From: a virus
DNA: 57,068 nt
Strand: one strand, 5' to 3'
IMG/VR virus record: IMGVR_UViG_3300044796_000031
Coordinates: 1 to 57,068 of that record
Shown here: piece after piece, positions 1-57,068 of the stretch
How positions within the stretch are numbered: the first letter of the stretch is position 1
How the letters are laid out: each line of letters starts with the position of its first letter
Notes under the pieces: model-generated
Databases searched by the model: none
What the model was told of the DNA's origin: nothing
What the model saw: the letters and a program-made list of their open reading frames with translations, nothing else
Position numbers and translations under genes: made by a program

Positions 1-185
1 CAGCGACGTGGGAGAATCCCCTTTCCGGGTCACTGTTAGCGGGGTGGCTTGTCATAGCGCCCATTTGCTCCGCGCTGGCTTATAGGCCGCACATCTATGT
101 CACAGGGGAATCAGAATCAGGCAAATCAACGATAATGGATAAAGTAATAAAGGCCGTCCTTGGTAGGGCTGCGCTCTGTGTAGAT
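1..185. repeat. Terminal redundancy, left copy
   Basis: Bases 1-185 match 56884-57068 with five substitutions, at 8, 29, 41, 53 and 59; bases 60-185 are identical. All five fall on third codon positions of the primase-helicase frame and are synonymous. The overlap shows that the ends join, giving a unit of about 56,883 bp. Mismatches argue against a packaged direct terminal repeat and for two alleles in the sampled population. Confidence 0.95.
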
Positions 186-1151
186 GGCGGCACTACTGAG
201 CCAGGTATTAGGGATATGATGGGGCATGACGGCAGGCCGCTAGTATATGATGAGGCCGAGCCGTCACCTTCTATGCCTGAAGTGATCGGCTTGGCGCGCA
301 AGGCTTCCACTGGGTCGGTGGTTAAGAAATTTGGGCAGCGTCCGTTCAAGGCGCGGTTCGCGGCATGTTTCAGCGCGATTAACCCACCAGTGAATAAAAC
401 GGCGGATGAGAACAGAATCAGCTTCATGCATCTTAAAAAGAACCGCAAGCCAACGGCCATGCAGGATTACGACGATTTGCTGGCACTCATAGACGAAACA
501 ATAACAGCAGATTTCTCCGAGAGGATGGTCGCGCGCACGTTAGAGAATATGGATGCGCTGATAAAAAATATCCGCATCTTTCAGCGCGCCGTGAGAAAAA
601 CAACAGGAGCGGCGCGTGCAGCGCAGCAAATAGGAACCATGCTTGCTGGTCTGTATCTATTAGGCCGCACGGATGTAATCGAGGAAGCGGCGGCGCTTGA
701 GTGGGTCGGAAAATATAGTTGGACAGACCACACAATCGTTGACCAAGACGGCGATCCTATTCGGCTGGTGCAGCATATTACTGGATCCCTGATTCGGTAC
801 GCAAAGAGCGGGTCTGACATTACCATAGGTGAACTTATAAGCATGGCGTCAAAAGAGAGGGACGCATCATCGGATAAATTGCTAAGGAATTACGGAATAG
901 CAGTGCGCGGTCAATGGGTGGACATAGCCAGCAGGTCGGCAAACTTGGCGCGGTTGCTCAAGGATACTGATTGGCACGATAAGTGGTCACGCACACTGGG
1001 GGACGTTGAGGGTTCGGAAAAACGCAGAATATCCTATTTCTCTCCGGGCATAAAGACCAGCGCGATTGCTATACCTCTTACTCTATTTATTGAGCAGGAA
1101 GTCGAGGTGCAGGATTTTTATAGTGGTGGTGAGCAGGAATTGGAATTTTAA
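3..1151 (+). CDS. Toprim/helicase replication protein, C-terminal part
   Basis: This is the continuation of the gene that begins at 55275 and runs off the right end. Joined across the 185-base overlap, the protein is 919 residues. The left part carries the P-loop GESESGKST, then a Walker B-like VYDEAEP, an arginine-containing segment and a sensor-like FAACFSAINPP, as in phage primase-associated or DUF927-like helicases. It probably unwinds DNA at replication forks. The 5' end here is an artefact of where the circle was opened, so the first ATG in frame (135) is not a real start. A GAGGAGG ribosome site for the next gene follows its stop. Confidence 0.85.
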   Translation, partial: ATWENPLSGSLLAGWLVIAPICSALAYRPHIYVTGESESGKSTIMDKVIKAVLGRAALCVDGGTTEPGIRDMMGHDGRPLVYDEAEPSPSMPEVIGLARKASTGSVVKKFGQRPFKARFAACFSAINPPVNKTADENRISFMHLKKNRKPTAMQDYDDLLALIDETITADFSERMVARTLENMDALIKNIRIFQRAVRKTTGAARAAQQIGTMLAGLYLLGRTDVIEEAAALEWVGKYSWTDHTIVDQDGDPIRLVQHITGSLIRYAKSGSDITIGELISMASKERDASSDKLLRNYGIAVRGQWVDIASRSANLARLLKDTDWHDKWSRTLGDVEGSEKRRISYFSPGIKTSAIAIPLTLFIEQEVEVQDFYSGGEQELEF

Positions 1152-8470: not shown

Positions 8471-9655
8471 ATGACTAAAGAAAAATCACAAGCCGAACTA
8501 CAAATTGAAGCCCTAGCTGATGTTTTTAATATTGCGGGGGAAGGATTCGAGGAGTTTTATAAAGTCACCAAAGAGAAAGCGTCAGGCGACTCCAGCAAGG
8601 CAGCTTCCTCGGGCTACTCCAGCACGGCAGCTTCCTCGGGCGACTCCAGCAAGGCAGCTTCCTCGGGCTACTCCAGCACGGCAGCTTCCTCGGGCTACTC
8701 CAGCACGGCAGCTTCCTCGGGCGACTACAGCAAGGCAGCTTCCTCGGGCGACTACAGCACGGCAGCTTCCTCGGGCTACTCCAGCACGGCAGCTTCCTCG
8801 GGCGACTCCAGCACGGCAGCTTCCTCGGGCTACTCCAGCACGGCAGCTTCCTCGGGCTACTCCAGCACGGCAGCTTCCTCGGGCTACTCCAGCACGGCAG
8901 CTTCCTCGGGCTACTCCAGCACGGCAGCTTCCTCGGGCTACTCCAGCACGGCAGCTTCCTCGGGCGACTACAGCAAGGCAGCTTCCTCGGGCGACTACAG
9001 CAAGGCAGCTTCCTCGGGCGACTACAGCAAGGCAGCTTCCTCGGGCTACTCCAGCACGGCAGCTTCCTCGGGCGAGCATAGCGCCTGTTCTGCATTGGGC
9101 TATCGCGCCGCTGTTAAGGGCGACAAGGGCAATCTGATTATGGCCTCCGAATATATCAAAAAAGACGGCAAGATTATTCCTGTCGGCGGCAAAGCAGACC
9201 TCGTAGACGGCAAGAAAATCAAGGCCTGGTGTTGGTACATCGTCGAAGATGCTAAATGGGTAGAAGTTGATTTCACGGACGGCATTTTCTCGCGCGTTAT
9301 CTCGACTCGACAAGGCGTTAAAAAAGTAAAAACCGACGAAGGAAAAACGCTATTTATCGTTTCCGATGAAAACGGCAATTCTGCGCATGGTGAGACAATT
9401 GCGGATGCGCGCGAAAGCCTGATTTACAAGAATGTAGCCAAATTTGAAGGCAAGCTTCCGAAATCAGCCACCGGCAAGGAGTGGATAGGTCTGTACCGCG
9501 CGGTCACTGGAGCATGTGCAGCGGGCGTTAAGATGTTCGTTGATGAATCCGGCAAGAGTCTGGATGACACGTATACATCTGCGCAGATATTGAAGCTGGT
9601 AAAAGGTCGCTTTGGTGCAGAGAAATTTGCTGAGAAAATGAAGGAGGCTGTATGA
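8471..9655 (+). CDS. Tandem-repeat (9-residue) protein, 394 aa
   Basis: Residues 1-38 are an acidic helical head. Residues 39-200 are 18 tandem nine-residue units of the form G-[YD]-[SY]-S-[TK]-AASS. The remaining 194 residues form a globular tail (starting GEHSACSALGYRAAVKG) with a lysine-rich alpha/beta part. Regular Gly/Ser/Ala repeats of this kind suggest a stacked beta-solenoid like adhesin heads or ice-binding folds. Proteins with repeats followed by a similar GDKG-containing tail occur in phages without a known role. There is no signal peptide. It overlaps the next gene as ATGA. Expression with early genes argues against a virion fibre. Confidence 0.85.
   Translation: MTKEKSQAELQIEALADVFNIAGEGFEEFYKVTKEKASGDSSKAASSGYSSTAASSGDSSKAASSGYSSTAASSGYSSTAASSGDYSKAASSGDYSTAASSGYSSTAASSGDSSTAASSGYSSTAASSGYSSTAASSGYSSTAASSGYSSTAASSGYSSTAASSGDYSKAASSGDYSKAASSGDYSKAASSGYSSTAASSGEHSACSALGYRAAVKGDKGNLIMASEYIKKDGKIIPVGGKADLVDGKKIKAWCWYIVEDAKWVEVDFTDGIFSRVISTRQGVKKVKTDEGKTLFIVSDENGNSAHGETIADARESLIYKNVAKFEGKLPKSATGKEWIGLYRAVTGACAAGVKMFVDESGKSLDDTYTSAQILKLVKGRFGAEKFAEKMKEAV
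8585..9070 (+). repeat. 18 x 27-bp coding tandem repeat
   Basis: Eighteen head-to-tail 27-bp units (486 bp). By eye, only three bases vary between units: T/G at base 4 (TAC or GAC), C/A at base 8 (TCC or TAC) and C/A at base 14 (ACG or AAG). Each change alters an amino acid, and no synonymous change was seen. Because 27 is a multiple of three and the unit lacks stops in several frames, other frames and the opposite strand are also open here. Confidence 0.95.
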
Positions 9656-47998: not shown

Positions 47999-48027
47999 TT
48001 TATTGCACAGATTCAGCCAGTTGTCAA
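47999..48027 (-). promoter_or_regulatory. Candidate sigma70 promoter for HNH gene
   Basis: On the minus strand TTGACA (48022-48027) overlaps the TerL stop, followed by a 17-base spacer and AATAAA (47999-48004). The -35 sits in a CAGTTG-T-CAACTG palindrome. Confidence 0.4.
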
Positions 48028-50630
48028 CTGTACGACCCTACGTCTGTATTGTAATAATAGGATGGTGTGCGCTCTGGAACAATCTTGCCCCGCAGATAAC
48101 CCGTCTTATCTAAATACATAAGCGCCATAACGATTGCGTCCACCCCATCATCGTGAGCGCAATTGGGGAACGAGGTCAATTGCCCGTATGCCTTACTGAG
48201 CCACGACATCACCATCCCCTTGCGCTTGGGGTTGCGTGATTCTGGAAGCCATAAGTAACCGTCTCTGACTAGGTGCGAGACTAGATTAGCGCGAGCGCTC
48301 TTATCAAGCGAACCGGGATTAAACCCATAAACCGCAATACCAGCCCGCTTTAAATCAGGAATGAGTGCCGACCCGCTCGCCTTGTCCTCGACTATACACG
48401 CATCAACCAACTTATCATTCGCTCCGTATTTATTCGTATACTGGTCAATTACCGTATCGCGTAATTCTGGATAGGCCACCTTTTCCATATAGCAATCGAG
48501 TACCATAATTGAATACTTGGATGACCCCTCCACCGCCTTAAACAGCCCCAGCATCATGAGGCATGAATCATCCGCCGTTTGCTTTACGCTAAATGCCCCA
48601 TCAATCGAAAGAAACACCGCGTCGAATGCTGGCAGTTCTTTATCGTGTGGCCATAGACGGAACCAATCGGGCTGAAAGATAACGCTATCCGATGCCATAG
48701 GGTTTTGCAGCATTTGGGATGACAGAATCGCGGGTGACATTTCCTGCACCTTTTTTTCCCATTCGTCCTGCGAAAAGTAAACCGGATTCCCCTCCGCTGT
48801 GCCGTCATCCGTAGCGGGATATATTCTAGGCTTCACCACTCCGCGCTCGATGTAAACCTGATATGCGTCCCCGACCTTGTACCGCGTCCCGATCATGCGC
48901 ATGTGTCCGCCGCGCTTGCCAAGGTTGTGTGACATATCCAAAGCGTCGAGTGTCTTTTGCATTTGCTCGGCTGTACTGACGGATTCCATCGTAGTTACAT
49001 CATCGTAAATTCGTATATCGAAATGGCGACCAGTTGGTGCGCCGTCAACAAGCCCGTGCGCCTCTACGGTAGCCTCCGGCGGGTTGCCCTTTCGTATTAC
49101 AGTGATCCCCTGATCTTCGGACCATTTGGGCGAATCTTCCACGTTGTAAAATAGAATGTCATGAAAACAGCCGCGCAATTCCACGTTTGTTTCAAATTCC
49201 CGCTTGATAACGCGCAGGAACGATTTAGCCATAGGCTTAGTGTGCGAGAAAATGCCGATGGTGATTTCTGGATTGTTGATGATGTCGAAAATGGTTAGGG
49301 CAACAGTAATCACCAGCGAGTTGTGAGTTGTGACCATTGAGCGACCAGTCAAATATAGCCCGTCCTCTCGGTCTACTTGTATGCAGCGCATTGGCTCACT
49401 TAGTACGGGTTCACATGCTACAATATAGCGGCGCGGGTTACGGCGTTCTCCATCTTTGCATCGTTCCAACTTCCTAGACAATCTAAACGGCGGCAATGAC
49501 TTGTATCCCTGAAACGACACATGATAAGAAACATGCGGCTTACCATTGTATGGCGTTCTATTGATGTATAGCGACGGCTTAAGGCCAAGCGTATCACATA
49601 ACTCGATGAACTGATAAGCCAGCGGCTCTAACACTGTGCAGAATGATGCCGTCCCTCTTGTGTTGCACGTCCCGTCGGTATCCATTAGCCCCTGTAGTAA
49701 TGCAAGCCGCTGCGCTTCGGATGCGCGGAGATACACTGACGGGATATGTTTGTTTTTTGCTAAACCTAATGCGCGAATTGCATTCATAAAATCGGATGAG
49801 GTTCGCTTGCCTTGAATGCCGTCGCCTAAACGCAATCGGACGCAATGCTTGCGCTCCTTGCGCGTTACTGCAATACCTTCGGCGCGCAATAGTCCACCCA
49901 TCTCGTCGGCATCATTAAGCCCAGATGTAATTTGCGGCCCGTTAGAATCGCCATCACCAACCCATGCCCCTAGCAAGTATGGACTTACCGGCAATGCCAC
50001 ATCCGGCAACTGCAACGGTGCATTAACGCGCACGGCAAGCCTATTATCCGCCCCATGATTATGCGTTGAGATTTCTCGCGTATTCACAACAACTGATTCG
50101 CGGTATTTGCGACCATTTTTTGTTCCGCTGATTCGCTTGCGCGTTCTGCGCTCGACTTCCCATAAATGGTTGCCGCTGCATTTTATCGCGGTTCCGTCAT
50201 CAAATGTAATGCGGTAGCAATCGGTGCCGTGATATATGGGGCTCAGTGCCACAACGCGGCAAACCGTCCCGTCCGGCGAGAAAATGGAATCGCCTTCTTT
50301 TAAATCGCCATGCCGCACCCAGCCAGTCGGCGTCGGCGTCGGCTCATCAAGCGACTGTGCCTTACCATGCTCCCGCGCCCACAGATCCAAGCACCCGTTA
50401 GGCTCTGCCTGTACTTCCCGGCAGCGCTCGAAAAACCAATCCGTATCGGCAAAGGTGCGCCCCAGCCCATACACCAGCAGCGCGAATAGATCACTCTTGT
50501 AAAGTAGCGTCTTGTAGTAAATCTCCTCTTTGACGCTCAATGTTTTGAACGAGCGTATTAAATCCCTCAAGACTTCCCGTGATGAGGCCAACTGCACCGG
50601 AGTGCTTGTGCTCGATTGCTGTTTTGTCAC
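48024..50630 (-). CDS. terL: Terminase large subunit with intein
   Basis: The packaging motor. Exteins make about 521 residues. The N-terminal ATPase has CREVQAEPNGCLDLWAREHGK, interrupted in the P-loop by a 347-residue intein, resuming with SLVITVALTIF. A Walker B-like IRIYDDV follows. The C-terminal RNase H-type nuclease has Asp/Glu residues in SIDGAF, IVEDKASG and HDDGVDA. The start is uncertain because no ATG is available: GTG 50630 has a GGGG ribosome site, while the frame is open to TTG 50678. Either overlaps TerS by over 100 bases. Confidence 0.88.
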   Translation of the reverse strand: MTKQQSSTSTPVQLASSREVLRDLIRSFKTLSVKEEIYYKTLLYKSDLFALLVYGLGRTFADTDWFFERCREVQAEPNGCLDLWAREHGKAQSLDEPTPTPTGWVRHGDLKEGDSIFSPDGTVCRVVALSPIYHGTDCYRITFDDGTAIKCSGNHLWEVERRTRKRISGTKNGRKYRESVVVNTREISTHNHGADNRLAVRVNAPLQLPDVALPVSPYLLGAWVGDGDSNGPQITSGLNDADEMGGLLRAEGIAVTRKERKHCVRLRLGDGIQGKRTSSDFMNAIRALGLAKNKHIPSVYLRASEAQRLALLQGLMDTDGTCNTRGTASFCTVLEPLAYQFIELCDTLGLKPSLYINRTPYNGKPHVSYHVSFQGYKSLPPFRLSRKLERCKDGERRNPRRYIVACEPVLSEPMRCIQVDREDGLYLTGRSMVTTHNSLVITVALTIFDIINNPEITIGIFSHTKPMAKSFLRVIKREFETNVELRGCFHDILFYNVEDSPKWSEDQGITVIRKGNPPEATVEAHGLVDGAPTGRHFDIRIYDDVTTMESVSTAEQMQKTLDALDMSHNLGKRGGHMRMIGTRYKVGDAYQVYIERGVVKPRIYPATDDGTAEGNPVYFSQDEWEKKVQEMSPAILSSQMLQNPMASDSVIFQPDWFRLWPHDKELPAFDAVFLSIDGAFSVKQTADDSCLMMLGLFKAVEGSSKYSIMVLDCYMEKVAYPELRDTVIDQYTNKYGANDKLVDACIVEDKASGSALIPDLKRAGIAVYGFNPGSLDKSARANLVSHLVRDGYLWLPESRNPKRKGMVMSWLSKAYGQLTSFPNCAHDDGVDAIVMALMYLDKTGYLRGKIVPERTPSYYYNTDVGSYS
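49320..50360 (-). mobile_element. Intein with LAGLIDADG homing endonuclease in TerL
   Basis: A 347-residue in-frame insertion. Block A reads AQSLDEPTPTPTGWVRHGD. Block B is GTAIKCSGNHLW. The two LAGLIDADG-type motifs are YLLGAWVGDGD and LLQGLMDTDGT. Block F/G is GLYLTGRSMVTTHN, followed by Ser as the +1 residue. Removing residues from Ala to Asn gives REHGK-SLVITVAL, restoring a P-loop GKS; so the first residue is probably Ala. A Ser1 start would leave AQ inside the P-loop. Confidence 0.9.
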
Positions 50631-50946
50631 CAAATACCCCGCGATTCTCTTTACCAGCTTGCCATTTTTCCGCGTCAATCACCACACGCGCCACATCCGG
50701 TGCAATTTCACCGCTTAACGTGCGTTTAGTTATGTCGTCCATTCTATCGACTCTCGCAAATGCCCTAAATTCACGAGCGCGCGCGTATTTCTCGAAGAAA
50801 TCAGGGAATTCTCGCAACCAATTATAAACCGTTGCATAATGCGGCATATCTGGTTCGTCTGGTAAATTATTTATATTTGAGCCTGCTGCGACGTGCGCAC
50901 AAATTCTGTCTGCCAATTCTGGCGTATATCCTGAAGGTCTGCCCAT
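50491..50946 (-). CDS. terS: Terminase small subunit
   Basis: A 151-residue DNA-recognition subunit: MGRPSGYTPELADRICAHVAAGS is an N-terminal helix-turn-helix of the phage TerS type. ATVYNWLREFPDFFEKYARAREF and a C-terminal EHKHSGAVGLITG are also family hallmarks. In-frame starts exist at 50973 (ATG) and 50988 (GTG, with GGAA upstream). I chose 50946 because the family begins with GRPS-x-Y. It is the first gene of the late unit. Confidence 0.85.
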   Translation of the reverse strand: MGRPSGYTPELADRICAHVAAGSNINNLPDEPDMPHYATVYNWLREFPDFFEKYARAREFRAFARVDRMDDITKRTLSGEIAPDVARVVIDAEKWQAGKENRGVFGDKTAIEHKHSGAVGLITGSLEGFNTLVQNIERQRGDLLQDATLQE

Positions 50947-51190
50947 AGCTACAGGATAAGCATTTACACCCATCCTGTCAATAGGCACGCATTTCCATTC
51001 TTTTGCCCGTACAGCGCGAAGACGGAACTAGGCGGGGGATGGTGTTGGAAATGGGAGCGCGAAGGTCTGGTGAGAGGTTTGAAAAACAGAAAAGCACGGG
51101 CGTGATAAGTATAGAACCACAAAACCGCAGCGCAGCAAGGTAAGCCGCACGCAACAACTAACATAAAAACCATTTGCTGCTATAAATATC

Positions 51191-51219
51191 GTTATAATTC
51201 ATAAGGGTAGCAATTTGAA
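51191..51219 (-). promoter_or_regulatory. Candidate late promoter toward terminase
   Basis: On the minus strand TTCAAA (51214-51219), a 17-base spacer and TATAAC (51191-51196) point toward TerS. The element lies between the first two iteron copies, so iteron binding could control it. Confidence 0.4.
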
Positions 51220-51268
51220 AAAATTTGCTGCCATCGATCTACCTTTTTGCTGCCATTTTTGCTGCCAT

Positions 51269-51335
51269 CTAAGTCTCTATATTATATACCTTTTTTAATT
51301 AAATATTTAAATAAATAGGTAATAATAATAATAGA
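51269..51335. other. A+T-rich core, possible unwinding element
   Basis: A stretch of nearly pure A and T (TATATTATATACC, TTTTTTAATTAAATATTTAAATAAATAGG, then repeated ATA) lies between the two iteron doublets, where a DNA-unwinding element of an origin would be expected. Confidence 0.55.
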
Positions 51336-51473
51336 CACGCTCATATGCGCGCGCCTGTGTACGCATACACACCTGCAACCCCCCGTCTATTTTTTCGATT
51401 GCTGCCATTTTTGCTGCCATGCTGGAAGTTATTGCTTTTATTCAAGAAAGTGCTGAAAACTGGTGAAATATGG

Positions 51474-51497
51474 ATGGCAGCAGGCATTTGCTGCCAT
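51474..51497. other. Perfect 9-bp hairpin made of two iterons
   Basis: ATGGCAGCA (51474-51482), a GGCATT loop and TGCTGCCAT (51489-51497) form a perfect stem from one inverted and one direct iteron copy. No T-tract follows on either strand, so it is unlikely to be an intrinsic terminator. Confidence 0.6.
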
Positions 51498-51591
51498 GCC
51501 GAAAAACCCCTAAGAATGTCGAATATGTTATAACGGTAGTCGCAAATCGTTAGTAAACACTTTTCTAATTTTATAAATATGTTTACATAAA

Positions 51592-51655: not shown

Positions 51656-51916
51656 ATGGACACTTTAAGTTTCAGAAAAAAGCATAATTTGACCGCCGGA
51701 GCGTTGGCGCAGCGTCTGGGTGTGGATCGGCAAACCGTCTACAATTGGGAGAGTGGGAACAGAAAAGCGGCTGGATATTTGGGCCTAGCGTTGGAAGCAT
51801 TAGAAGCGAAATTGGTGAAATTATCGCCGCAAAAAACAGAGGCTAAAAAGAGCGCGGCAGCTATTGAAGCCGAAGCAATAGCTAGATATAGGGCATCAAT
51901 TAATGATATAATTTAA
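51656..51916 (+). CDS. Helix-turn-helix regulator, 86 aa
   Basis: The HTH is visible as LSFRKKHNLTAGALAQRLGVDRQTVYNWESGNRKAAGYLGLAL, an XRE-like DNA-binding domain. It is followed by an Ala/Lys-rich helix (EAKKSAAAIEAEAIARYR). GAGGGT lies upstream of the ATG. As first gene of the plus unit, next to the iteron region, it may be the Cro/CI-type switch protein or the iteron-binding initiator. Confidence 0.82.
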   Translation: MDTLSFRKKHNLTAGALAQRLGVDRQTVYNWESGNRKAAGYLGLALEALEAKLVKLSPQKTEAKKSAAAIEAEAIARYRASINDII

Positions 51917-53926: not shown

Positions 53927-54775
53927 ATGTATGAGCAAAAAATAGATTACGAAGCGATACCCGATGCGGCACTAGCTGAGACAGTGCTTACGGAATTGCA
54001 ATTTCACCATGACCACGACCAGATCGTGCAGGGCAGGTATTGGGAAGGCGGCAAGGGTTGCGCGGTGGGGTGTTTACTGAAATCAAGCAACCACGAGGAA
54101 TACGAGCCGAAATTTGGCATTCCTTTAATGCTTGCGCGCTTGGAGGATCGGTTATTCGAGGGACTAAAGAACGGCGAGGCGAAGGCATGGCCCATGCAGT
54201 TTATGTCCACGGCTATGCAGATACGTGAAACGCGCCCGGAGAGATTGGAAGCGTTAAAGCCTGTCGGTTGGCAATTCTTGTATTGGCTGTTGACTGAGGA
54301 ACTACCTAAAAGCGTTGTCGGTGAAGGTAAGGTTTTCGACGATGTACGCAAGGCAATTGCACAGTGTGCCGATATTCTGTTGCCACTAACAAAAGGCGAT
54401 AAAGTAGATAAAGATGCTGCGGATGCTGCGTATGCTGCGTATGCTGCGTATGCTGCTGCGCGTGCTGCGTATGCTGCGGATGCTGCGTATGCTGCGTATG
54501 CTGCGGATGCTGCGTATGCTGCGGATGCTGCGGATGCTGCGTATGCTGCTGCGCGTGCTGCGGATGCTGCGCGTGCTGCTGCGCGTGCTGCGTATGCTGC
54601 GGATGCTGCGTATGCTGCTGCGCGTGCTGCGGATGCTGCGTATGCTGCTGCGCGTGCTGCTGCGCGTGCTGCGTATGCTGCGGATGCTGCGGATGCTGCG
54701 TATGCTGCTGCGGATGCTGCTGCTTGCTATAAGAGAATGTCTGACAAACTAATCGAACTAATGGAGGCCGCATGA
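53927..54775 (+). CDS. Alanine-rich repeat protein, 282 aa
   Basis: Residues 1-162 are a folded domain (GRYWEGGKGCAVGCLLKSSNHEEYE, LARLEDRLFEGLKNGEA, RPERLEALKPVGWQFLYWLLTEELP). From about 163 to 266 the sequence consists only of Ala spaced by Tyr, Asp or Arg in AAY, AAD and AAAR units, then ends in a short helix (RMSDKLIELMEAA). Such Ala-rich repeats would form one long helix. The N-terminal domain with this tail recurs in phages and bacteria without known function. CAAAGGAGA precedes the ATG. It overlaps the next gene as ATGA. Confidence 0.85.
   Translation: MYEQKIDYEAIPDAALAETVLTELQFHHDHDQIVQGRYWEGGKGCAVGCLLKSSNHEEYEPKFGIPLMLARLEDRLFEGLKNGEAKAWPMQFMSTAMQIRETRPERLEALKPVGWQFLYWLLTEELPKSVVGEGKVFDDVRKAIAQCADILLPLTKGDKVDKDAADAAYAAYAAYAAARAAYAADAAYAAYAADAAYAADAADAAYAAARAADAARAAARAAYAADAAYAAARAADAAYAAARAAARAAYAADAADAAYAAADAAACYKRMSDKLIELMEAA
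54413..54726 (+). repeat. Coding repeat of (GCT)GCTGCG plus TAT/GAT/CGT
   Basis: About 34 units of 9 or 12 bases. The Ala codons keep the same order (GCT GCG, or GCT GCT GCG) and are followed by TAT, GAT or CGT. All three spacer codons end in T. CGT follows the longer 12-base unit in all but one case. Shadow open frames appear in other frames and on the other strand. Confidence 0.92.
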
Positions 54776-55074: not shown

Positions 55075-55278
55075 GTGTCACCGGCAAATATAACACCTCA
55101 GCAATTCAAGGACTTGGCAACCGAACTATTCGGAAACGAATGGATCGAGCAGTTATGTCTGCGTTTGGATGTGCAGCGGCGAACGCCGCTTAGATGGGCA
55201 AGCGGGGAACGCCCAATCCCTGCCGCAGTTGAGGAGCTTTTGCTATTCCTGCGTAATGGCCGGAGGAACGCGCTATGA
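55075..55278 (+). CDS. HTH-like regulator, 67 aa
   Basis: GTG start with GGGAGCG upstream. The sequence TPQQFKDLATELFGNEWIEQLCLRLDVQRRTPLRWASGERPIPAAVEELLLFLR resembles a minimal helix-turn-helix of the Cro or transposase-associated kind. It is coupled by ATGA to the primase-helicase gene and may regulate or assist replication. Confidence 0.7.
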   Translation: MSPANITPQQFKDLATELFGNEWIEQLCLRLDVQRRTPLRWASGERPIPAAVEELLLFLRNGRRNAL

Positions 55279-57068
55279 AGGCCGCATTATCACTTGTCAG
55301 CCCGATAGACCACATCGGCGCATTTATAGACCACATGGCAGGGAACGGCTGCGAGCCAGCAAGCGGCGCGGATATAATAGCAGACGACAAGCGCCACCTG
55401 ATAGGGCTAGCCGGGGATAAGAAGTCCGAGCGTGCGTTATATTACCGGCTGGATATTCGGGAAGGGTACAGCTTGGGCTGGTACAAGAATTGCAAAACCG
55501 GCGAGACTTACAACTATAAGAACGGGAAAGAGCCGAAGCGCAGCGCCGAGGAAATTGCGGCGATCAAAATGGCGCGGGAGAAAGAAAAGCGGCAGCGAGA
55601 GGCCGCAGAGGAAAAGACACATAAGCGCCTAGCTGCTAGACTTAAACGTGCTTTTAATAACCTACCGGCAGCCCGCGCGCATCCTTACCTGACAGAGAAG
55701 GGCGTCGAGGCGCATGGGATAAAATACCGTGCGAAGGGGAAAGAATTAATTATACCAATTTATGGTATTAAGGGCGAACTGTTCAGCGTGCAGCGCATTA
55801 GCGCGACGTGGAAGGGTTATTTTTCAGGTGGTAAGATTTCGGGGTGCTATTTCCCAATGGCAACCAAGGGGGGGGATTTCAGCACGATCCTGATAGCTGA
55901 AGGCTTTGCCACGGCGGCGAGTGTGCGGGAAGCTACAGACTTGCCGGTGGTGGTTGCTTTTGATGCTGGAAATTTAAAGCCGGTGGCGCTGGCGATGCGG
56001 AAAAAATATCCCGATGCGCGCATTGTGTTTGCGGCGGATAATGACCAGTGGAAATTCAACCCGAAAAAACGCCCAACGGGTTTAAAGTCCGACGACATAA
56101 CGGGTGACTCGCCGGAATGGGAAAGGCTGCGCGCGGAGGGATTCACCTATAACACAGGTATTGATAAGGCGCAGCAGGCAGCGGCGGCGATAGGCGGCGG
56201 AATAGTGTTGGCCCCGCCGTTTACTGGAAGTGAGGCGCACAAAAAAAACGATTGGAATGATTACGCGGCGCTATTCGGCAATGACGCCGTGCGGGTGGCA
56301 TTTGATGCGGCGCTGGCCATTAAGAAACCAGCGGCAGAACCTGAGCCAGAAGAATATGAGCCAGAGCCACCCGTGGGCGGTGATGATACTCTAATGGTCA
56401 GCCCGAAGATTACGGGCGACATGGGGATGAAATTCAAGGTGCTGGGGTATAATGAGGGGAAATACTATTATTACCCGTTCGCGCTGCGTCAGATTGTATC
56501 ACTCACGGCGTCCAGCCACTCTATCCAGAATCTAATGCAGCTTGATAGTCTGGACGCATGGGAATCACGGTGGCGCGACGAGGACGGCAAGTTAAAGGCC
56601 AAGCACCAAGTAATCGCTCTTTATGCGTCCGCCTCCCTCATGGGGATTGCAGAAAAGCGCGGCGTATTCATGGAAGAAGATAGGGTGCGCGGTGGCGGTG
56701 CGTGGTTGGATGAGGGGCGCGTGATATTACACTGCGGCGATGCGCTGTATGTGGATGGGGATTATAAAAAGTTCGATGAATTGGTGACAGAATTTACCTA
56801 TGTAGCAGCACCAAGACTATTACGTCCGGCGAAGGCAGCGTTAACTAATGCAGAAGCACATCGTTTGCGGGTAATCTGCGAGTCAGCGACATGGGAGAAT
56901 CCCCTTTCCGGCTCACTGTTAGCTGGGTGGCTTGTAATAGCCCCCATTTGCTCCGCGCTGGCTTATAGGCCGCACATCTATGTCACAGGGGAATCAGAAT
57001 CAGGCAAATCAACGATAATGGATAAAGTAATAAAGGCCGTCCTTGGTAGGGCTGCGCTCTGTGTAGAT
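55275..57068 (+). CDS. Toprim/helicase replication protein, N-terminal part
   Basis: Open through the right end; the rest lies at 3-1151. Residues 1-130 are an N-terminal part rich in Lys and aromatic residues without a visible CHC2 zinc finger. Residues about 200-265 form a Toprim-like domain (ILIAEGFATAASV, VVAFDAGNL, IVFAADND). An acidic linker near 350-370 follows. The helicase part starts near residue 390, with P-loop GESESGKST at about 572-580. It resembles phage and plasmid primase-helicases of the DUF927/TraC-Toprim type and would prime and unwind DNA. It starts at an ATGA overlap with the HTH gene. Confidence 0.87.
   Translation, partial: MKAALSLVSPIDHIGAFIDHMAGNGCEPASGADIIADDKRHLIGLAGDKKSERALYYRLDIREGYSLGWYKNCKTGETYNYKNGKEPKRSAEEIAAIKMAREKEKRQREAAEEKTHKRLAARLKRAFNNLPAARAHPYLTEKGVEAHGIKYRAKGKELIIPIYGIKGELFSVQRISATWKGYFSGGKISGCYFPMATKGGDFSTILIAEGFATAASVREATDLPVVVAFDAGNLKPVALAMRKKYPDARIVFAADNDQWKFNPKKRPTGLKSDDITGDSPEWERLRAEGFTYNTGIDKAQQAAAAIGGGIVLAPPFTGSEAHKKNDWNDYAALFGNDAVRVAFDAALAIKKPAAEPEPEEYEPEPPVGGDDTLMVSPKITGDMGMKFKVLGYNEGKYYYYPFALRQIVSLTASSHSIQNLMQLDSLDAWESRWRDEDGKLKAKHQVIALYASASLMGIAEKRGVFMEEDRVRGGGAWLDEGRVILHCGDALYVDGDYKKFDELVTEFTYVAAPRLLRPAKAALTNAEAHRLRVICESATWENPLSGSLLAGWLVIAPICSALAYRPHIYVTGESESGKSTIMDKVIKAVLGRAALCVD
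56884..57068. repeat. Terminal redundancy, right copy
   Basis: Same sequence as 1-185 except for five synonymous third-position changes in its first 59 bases. It closes the circle of the genome. Confidence 0.95.

What the first reader, a model, noticed from the sequence alone, without database searches (positions are those of the whole stretch)
51174..51497. Iteron array with A+T-rich core between the two transcription units
Six exact and two near-exact copies of TTGCTGCCAT, arranged as two spaced doublets around a nearly pure A/T tract, with two copies forming a perfect 9-bp hairpin. Seen directly. The layout matches iteron-type origins in principle, and no other origin candidate was seen. 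Alternatively it is an operator array for the HTH protein at 51656.
Basis: partly seen in the sequence, partly recalled or inferred. Interest (0 to 1): 0.75.

Follow-up and report, generated by a model that had tools for sequence, protein, structure and literature searches.

The report
Phage replication origin with short repeats
A virus of bacteria carries a cluster of ten-letter DNA repeats around the most easily opened stretch of its genome, very likely the place where copying of its DNA begins, and comparison with many relatives suggests that the tail end of the virus's own helicase-primase reads those repeats.

Summary
In detail: six exact and two one-mismatch copies of TTGCTGCCAT lie at 51174-51497, with no exact copy elsewhere in the 57 kb. 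The stretch between them contains the least stable 60 bp of the genome (51274-51333). Best reading: an iteron-type replication origin bound by the phage's own Toprim-primase/AAA+ helicase (55275-57068 joined to 1-1151). The evidence is comparative. In 77 usable viral loci encoding this helicase-primase family, a phage-specific 10-bp repeat array just downstream of the gene beats everywhere else in the locus in 55 (about 4 expected by chance). In 52 of 52 strong arrays analysed, two repeat sets flank a less stable core of about 85 bp. The repeat changes together with the last ~60 residues of the helicase-primase (partial r 0.61-0.71; 0 of 2000 permutations), but not with the sliding clamp encoded next door. 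AlphaFold2 puts the co-varying residues on a terminal beta-hairpin; the helicase's best structural match is SCCmec Cch, a SaPI Rep relative. The layout matches SaPI/PICI origins. Relatives argue against an HTH operator or packaging site. Binding and origin activity are untested, the array lies 3.8 kb upstream of its initiator gene, and the closest relative (L153) shows no clear array.

The parts
51174..51183 (+). outer left repeat, TTGCTGCTAT (1 mismatch)
51225..51234 (+). repeat TTGCTGCCAT, left set
51247..51268 (+). left doublet, two repeats 12 bp apart (51247, 51259), preceded by ACCTTTTT at 51241
51274..51333 (.). putative DNA-unwinding element: least stable 60 bp of the genome; holds TATATACCTTTTTT (ACCTTTTT at 51288)
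51320..51334 (+). trinucleotide run TAATAATAATAATAG; same arrangement after a TATATA element as in L141, L142, L145, L052
51342..51373 (.). alternating purine-pyrimidine tract CATATGCGCGCGCCTGTGTACGCATACACACC; a similar tract is in L142
51399..51420 (+). right doublet, two repeats 12 bp apart (51399, 51411)
51474..51497 (.). outer right inverted pair of repeats (9-bp arms, 6-nt loop)
55275..57068 (+). N-terminal part of the Toprim helicase-primase, the proposed initiator (gene continues across the record's ends)
6..1151 (+). C-terminal part of the helicase-primase: AAA+ helicase and terminal domain
1017..1076 (+). codons of the predicted beta-hairpin EKRRISYFSPGIKTSAIAIP, aligned with the residues that co-vary with the repeat in relatives

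Best explanation
51174-51497 is the phage's replication origin. Inferred mechanism: the C-terminal domain of the phage's helicase-primase binds the TTGCTGCCAT repeats on both sides of the core. Binding assembles AAA+ helicase rings on the two repeat sets, the A/T-rich core (51274-51333) melts, and the rings load onto the strands while the Toprim part primes synthesis, probably in both directions. Shown here by sequence: the array, its position, the unstable core, the shared layout in relatives, and co-variation of repeat and protein C-terminus in relatives. Inferred: binding, melting, loading, direction, and that the family rule holds for this phage.
For: (1) Repeats confined to one place, 0 of 200 shuffles as good. 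(2) They flank the least stable 60 bp of 57 kb. (3) 80 viral loci with the helicase-primase family: in 77 usable loci the array 3' of the gene beats the rest of the locus in 55, chance about 5% (18 of 31 clusters). (4) 52 of 52 strong arrays have two repeat sets around a less stable core, median 85 bp; ACCTTTTT is in 24 of 52 arrays against 15 copies in 772 kb elsewhere; the window has two of its five copies inside the array. (5) Nearer relatives (L141, L142, L145, JY13) share the core TATATA...T-run...(AAT/GAT)n AG; on the motif used it occurs once per sequence, at the array. (6) Repeat sequence co-varies with the last 60 aa of the helicase-primase, partial r 0.61-0.71, 0 of 2000 permutations; the adjacent clamp gene does not (partial -0.10). 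The top column of the whole alignment is one residue there, which falls on a predicted beta-hairpin. (7) The helicase model's best match is SCCmec Cch, Z 14.0, 297 residues; SaPI5 and D5 helicases also match. (8) Precedent: SaPI/PICI origins, and C-terminal origin recognition by SaPI Rep and Cch2 (PMC6092414, PMC7581432).
Against: The closest relative by helicase-primase (L153, 55% identity) has no significant array in the syntenic gap (180 of 200 shuffles as good). JY13 and L142 arrays are not significant on their own, and PY223 and MQ-4 show none near the gene. The array is about 3.8 kb upstream of its proposed initiator gene, whereas most relatives have it directly downstream. Co-variation was measured in the S-H1-like clade, not in the window's own. 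The core motif is also found in a phage group (L209-L211 and others) where this helicase-primase was not detected. GC skew is confounded with gene orientation. The terminal domain alone gives only weak structure matches (SaPIbov1 Rep Z 4.9, Cch Z 3.5).
Confidence: 0.82

Rival explanations
1. Operator array for the HTH_3 protein encoded at 51656, regulating the early promoter and perhaps the divergent terminase side.
For: The HTH gene starts 158 bp from the last repeat and is a cro/cI-like regulator; the outer pair at 51474-51497 is a dyad, as HTH dimers prefer.
Against: Seven of eight copies are direct repeats in one orientation around a 130-bp spacer, unusual for a dimeric repressor. Relatives with the same origin layout lack a detectable homologue of this HTH. 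Contigs with HTH relatives lack the repeat. The array type tracks the helicase-primase in many phages. Dual use of the outer dyad is not excluded.
Confidence: 0.06
2. Packaging initiation site (pac or cosB-like) bound by the small terminase encoded next door at 50491-50988.
For: Array lies directly upstream of an Sf6-like TerS gene, and repeats plus flexible DNA are known at such sites (own knowledge).
Against: Terminase relatives (TerL 70-72% identical, L012-L014) have a different DNA-replication gene set and no such repeat. In L141 the TerS gene is about 2 kb from the array and core; in the S-H1-like clade the array is at the helicase-primase gene.
Confidence: 0.04
3. Origin, but the repeats are read by another protein, such as the small HTH-like protein at 55075 or host DnaA.
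For: 55075 encodes a small protein of phrog_3626 directly upstream of the helicase-primase; the trinucleotide run resembles bacterial DnaA-trios (PMC8287927).
Against: No DnaA box within two mismatches at 51150-51560. In the S-H1-like clade repeat sequence tracks the helicase-primase C-terminus itself.
Confidence: 0.07

Closest known systems
SaPI / PICI replication origins (Rep or Pri-Rep plus ori)
   Same: Two sets of short iterons flanking an A/T-rich melting region; initiator is an AAA+ helicase (or primase-helicase) that recognises the origin through its C-terminal domain (PMC6092414, PMC7581432). Helicase fold best matched by Cch, a SaPIbov1 Rep relative.
   Different: Found in tailed-phage genomes; primase part is Toprim here rather than archaeo-eukaryotic type; in the window the array is 3.8 kb upstream of the gene; the core has a T-run and trinucleotide run; the iterons are decamers in mostly one orientation.
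Satellite phage P4 alpha protein and its ori/crr repeats
   Same: Toprim primase, helicase and C-terminal winged-helix domain in one protein that binds origin repeats (as described in PMC4234260).
   Different: Sequence relationship to alpha was not tested here; P4 needs two cis elements (own knowledge), while only one array was found here.
SCCmec Cch / Cch2 helicases and their putative origin
   Same: Self-loading helicase whose C-terminal domain binds direct repeats next to its gene (PMC7581432); Cch is the top structural match.
   Different: Only three 5-nt repeats at the Cch2 site; mobile island, not a phage.
Bacterial chromosome BUS element (DnaA boxes, GC tract, DnaA-trios)
   Same: Relatives show CCCC followed by trinucleotides (CTA, TTA) on one strand, resembling a GC tract followed by trios (PMC8287927).
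   Different: No DnaA box at the site; L142 lacks the central adenine typical of trios; a likeness only.

Membership tests
SaPI/PICI-type origin | two iteron sets flanking an A/T-rich region | tested here: met
   same in 52 of 52 strong family arrays
SaPI/PICI-type origin | origin immediately 3' of the initiator gene | tested here: not met
   window array is about 3.8 kb upstream of the gene; met in most S-H1-like relatives
SaPI/PICI-type origin | initiator is an AAA+ helicase of the Rep/Cch fold with a C-terminal DNA-binding domain | tested here: met
   AlphaFold2 model pLDDT 87; Cch best match in Foldseek (E 2e-7) and VIA-align (Z 14.0, rmsd 6.7, 297 residues); terminal domain alone only weakly matched
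SaPI/PICI-type origin | initiator binds the iterons and supports autonomous replication | not testable with these tools
   indirect support from co-variation
P4 alpha-type replicon | Toprim primase fused to helicase and terminal DNA-binding domain | tested here: met
   Toprim_3 above cut-off; model; DNA binding of the terminal domain itself is inferred
P4 alpha-type replicon | sequence homology to alpha and presence of both ori and crr | not tested
   no alpha sequence was compared; one array only was found in the window
iteron plasmid origin (RepA/RepE type) | DnaA boxes beside the iterons | tested here: not met
   no TTATCCACA within two mismatches at 51150-51560
iteron plasmid origin (RepA/RepE type) | Rep_3-like initiator in the genome | tested here: inconclusive
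   none among the proteins scanned; not all proteins were scanned
terminase pac/cos site | site conserved with its terminase | tested here: not met
   TerL relatives at 70-72% identity lack the repeat
HTH repressor operator array | array accompanies the regulator in relatives | tested here: not met
   HTH relatives L007-L009 lack the repeat; origin-layout relatives lack the HTH; the HTH relatives are distant

The most novel reading that the evidence does not exclude
A large, undescribed family of tailed phages uses SaPI-like origins, in which a beta-hairpin at the C-terminus of a helicase-primase reads a phage-specific decamer by a readable code (Arg with GTAAC, Trp with GTTAG, Tyr with GT[A/C]AG repeats), around a common unwinding core with a trinucleotide run that may be engaged as single strand by the AAA+ ring, in analogy to DnaA-trios.
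Probability: 0.45. Interest if true: 0.75.

Novelty: new variant of a known kind. Interest (0 to 1): 0.6.

Why it matters
[quoted passage not shown] Here the same arrangement appears in many viral contigs with a related class of helicase. That makes the origin predictable from sequence in these phages, links phage and satellite replication, and offers a natural set of matched protein-repeat pairs from which the origin-recognition code of a self-loading helicase could be worked out.

Tried and rejected
DNA-level comparison with phages: no match. TerS query in viral contigs: no relatives. C-terminal helicase-primase query alone: none; a first alignment was too diverse to search. Exact search for spaced TTGCTGCCAT pairs in viral contigs gave 32 loci, mostly regular pairs at 11 or multiples of 15 bp, not followed up and not taken as evidence of shared origins. 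HTH relative L009, a contig of similar length, turned out to be a different phage. GC skew judged uninformative because strand switches coincide with skew switches. Sequence profile search of PDB did not reach the helicase; fold comparison did. Foldseek with the terminal domain alone gave no significant match; absence there is not taken as evidence. A reverse search with the core motif found helicase-primase contigs (L145, L214, L219), but also a phage group without a detected helicase-primase and one likely chance hit (L212). DnaA as initiator disfavoured for lack of boxes.

Full report
Observation. The repeat array is as described: six exact and two one-mismatch copies of TTGCTGCCAT between 51174 and 51497, none exact elsewhere in the record. 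Against dinucleotide shuffles it is far beyond chance. The layout is: degenerate copy 51174; copy 51225; doublet 51247/51259; a 130-bp spacer; doublet 51399/51411; inverted pair 51474/51488. The 60 bp at 51274-51333, in the first half of the spacer, are the least stable 60 bp of the whole genome by nearest-neighbour energy.

Context. The record is a virus record of 57,068 bases whose ends overlap by 185 bp with five mismatches. Leftward genes from 50,988 down to about 14.8 kb include TerS (Sf6-like) and TerL. Rightward genes run from the HTH gene at 51,656 through a Toprim helicase-primase (55,275 across the ends to 1,151), a ResIII/DEAD helicase, a YqaJ exonuclease and RecT. The array sits in the divergent gap. 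Cumulative GC skew has its minimum at 51,008 and maximum at 13.8-17.4 kb, but gene orientation switches at the same places, so skew cannot discriminate.

Which gene does the array belong to? Relatives by TerL (L012-L014, 70-72% identity) carry other replication genes and no such repeat. Relatives by the HTH protein lack it too. Phages with the same helicase-primase family gave a different picture: in an unbiased scan, clusters of a different short repeat lay next to the helicase-primase gene in phi1422, S-H1, KLER1-1 and Acjo_20. The gaps in phi1422, KLER1-1 and Acjo_20 exceed all shuffles, those in PY223 and MQ-4 do not.

Large sample. A profile search gave 80 viral loci with S-H1-like helicase-primases. 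Of 77 loci with enough downstream sequence (S-H1 included), the best repeat cluster within about 600 nt after the gene beat every other place in the locus in 55 (6 ties), with about 5% expected by chance. After clustering at 85% DNA identity it was 18 of 31. In all 52 strong arrays examined (50 viral loci, S-H1 and phi1422) the repeats form two sets around a core, median 85 bp, that is less stable than its flanks. The element ACCTTTTT occurs in 24 of them, against 15 copies in 772 kb of other sequence from the same loci. The window has two of its five ACCTTTTT copies inside its array, one directly before the left repeat doublet.

Window-like clade. A second search found the nearest helicase-primases: L153 (55% identity), L141, L142, L143, JY13 (L052), L144, L145. 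Several share the order of early genes, and the repeats with the core lie in the gap upstream of the helicase-primase. Their cores line up by eye: a TATATA stretch, a T-run, four or five trinucleotides (AAT or GAT), then AG and usually GGG. A motif of TATATA followed by at least four A/T-rich trinucleotides occurs once in each of the window, JY13, L141, L142 and L145, each time at the array. The repeat sequences differ. Gaps in the window, L141, L149, L144 and L214 exceed all shuffles (for L214 the top 8-mer was GCCCAAAA, not the expected GTAATGAC); those in JY13, L142 and above all L153 do not. This weak point in the closest relative is the main gap in the argument.

Who reads the repeats? 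In the S-H1-like clade, distances between repeat sets were compared with protein distances along the helicase-primase. Only the last 60 alignment columns stand out (r 0.72, partial r 0.61 given whole-protein distance; none of 2000 permutations reached it). The sliding-clamp gene on the other side of the array serves as a linkage control and shows nothing (partial r -0.10; for the helicase-primase end in this subset, partial 0.71). The single most informative alignment column, out of 887, lies there: Arg accompanies GTAAC-type repeats in 8 of 8, Trp accompanies GTTAG-type in 9 of 10, Tyr accompanies GTAAG or GTCAG in 4 of 5. These sequences are dereplicated at 95% but still related, so the code is suggestive. 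In the window the aligned residue is Tyr and the repeat read on the other strand is ATGGCAGCAA; a single case proves nothing.

Structure. AlphaFold2 on 32 aligned sequences gave a confident model of the C-terminal part (pLDDT 87): an AAA+ core, a helical lid and a terminal alpha/beta domain ending in a beta-hairpin EKRRISYFSPGIKTSAIAIP, which is where the co-varying residues map. The best match of the whole model is SCCmec Cch (Foldseek E 2e-7; VIA-align Z 14.0, rmsd 6.7, 297 residues); PriRep1/SaPI5 and D5-type helicases and MCM also match. The terminal domain alone (pLDDT 90) has only weak matches, among them SaPIbov1 Rep (Z 4.9) and Cch (Z 3.5).

Comparison with the known. PICI origins always show two iteron sets flanking an A/T-rich region (PMC6092414). 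SaPI Rep and Cch2 recognise their origins by the C-terminal domain (PMC7581432), and P4 alpha combines a Toprim primase, a helicase and a winged helix that binds origin repeats (PMC4234260). The window works like these. It is not filed as a SaPI/PICI origin, because the array is not next to the initiator gene and binding was not tested. Literature searches in the open-access library found no description of this origin class in tailed phages; that library is incomplete.

Verdict. Iteron origin of a helicase-primase replicon, confidence 0.82. Shown: array, unstable core, family-wide layout, and co-variation in relatives. Inferred: binding, melting and helicase loading in this phage.

Noticed in passing
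48024-50678: TerL is interrupted by an intein-like insert with a LAGLIDADG domain, apparently at the Walker A lysine-serine junction (WAREHGKA...TTHNSLVITV against WAREHGKSTVITI in L012); relative L014 has an insert at a different TerL position.
   Followed up: partly
1-185 and 56884-57068: The two ends of the record overlap by 185 bp with 5 mismatches, within the helicase-primase gene; either assembly error or two strains joined.
   Followed up: partly
53927-54775: Protein with a long run of AAYAADAAY-type repeats (DNA repeat CTGCGTATGC, 14 copies); no Pfam match.
   Followed up: no
8471-9655: 394-aa protein encoded by a strongly repetitive stretch (15 copies of a 10-mer at 8666-9053); matches phrog_4433, function unknown.
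   Followed up: no
L209, L210, L211, L213, L215-L218, L220: A group of phages with the same core (TATATA...AATAATAATAATAGGGG) flanked by GTTCTGA/GGAAC repeats, in which the helicase-primase family was not detected; one of them encodes a family-A-like DNA polymerase. Their initiator is unknown.
   Followed up: partly
L142:4113-4200 and window 51342-51373: Alternating CG/CA tracts (ATATGCGCGCGCC) beside the unwinding core in both phages; role unknown.
   Followed up: no
L061-L140: A DNA polymerase III beta-clamp-like gene lies just beyond the origin array in most S-H1-like phages (20 of 23 dereplicated loci).
   Followed up: partly
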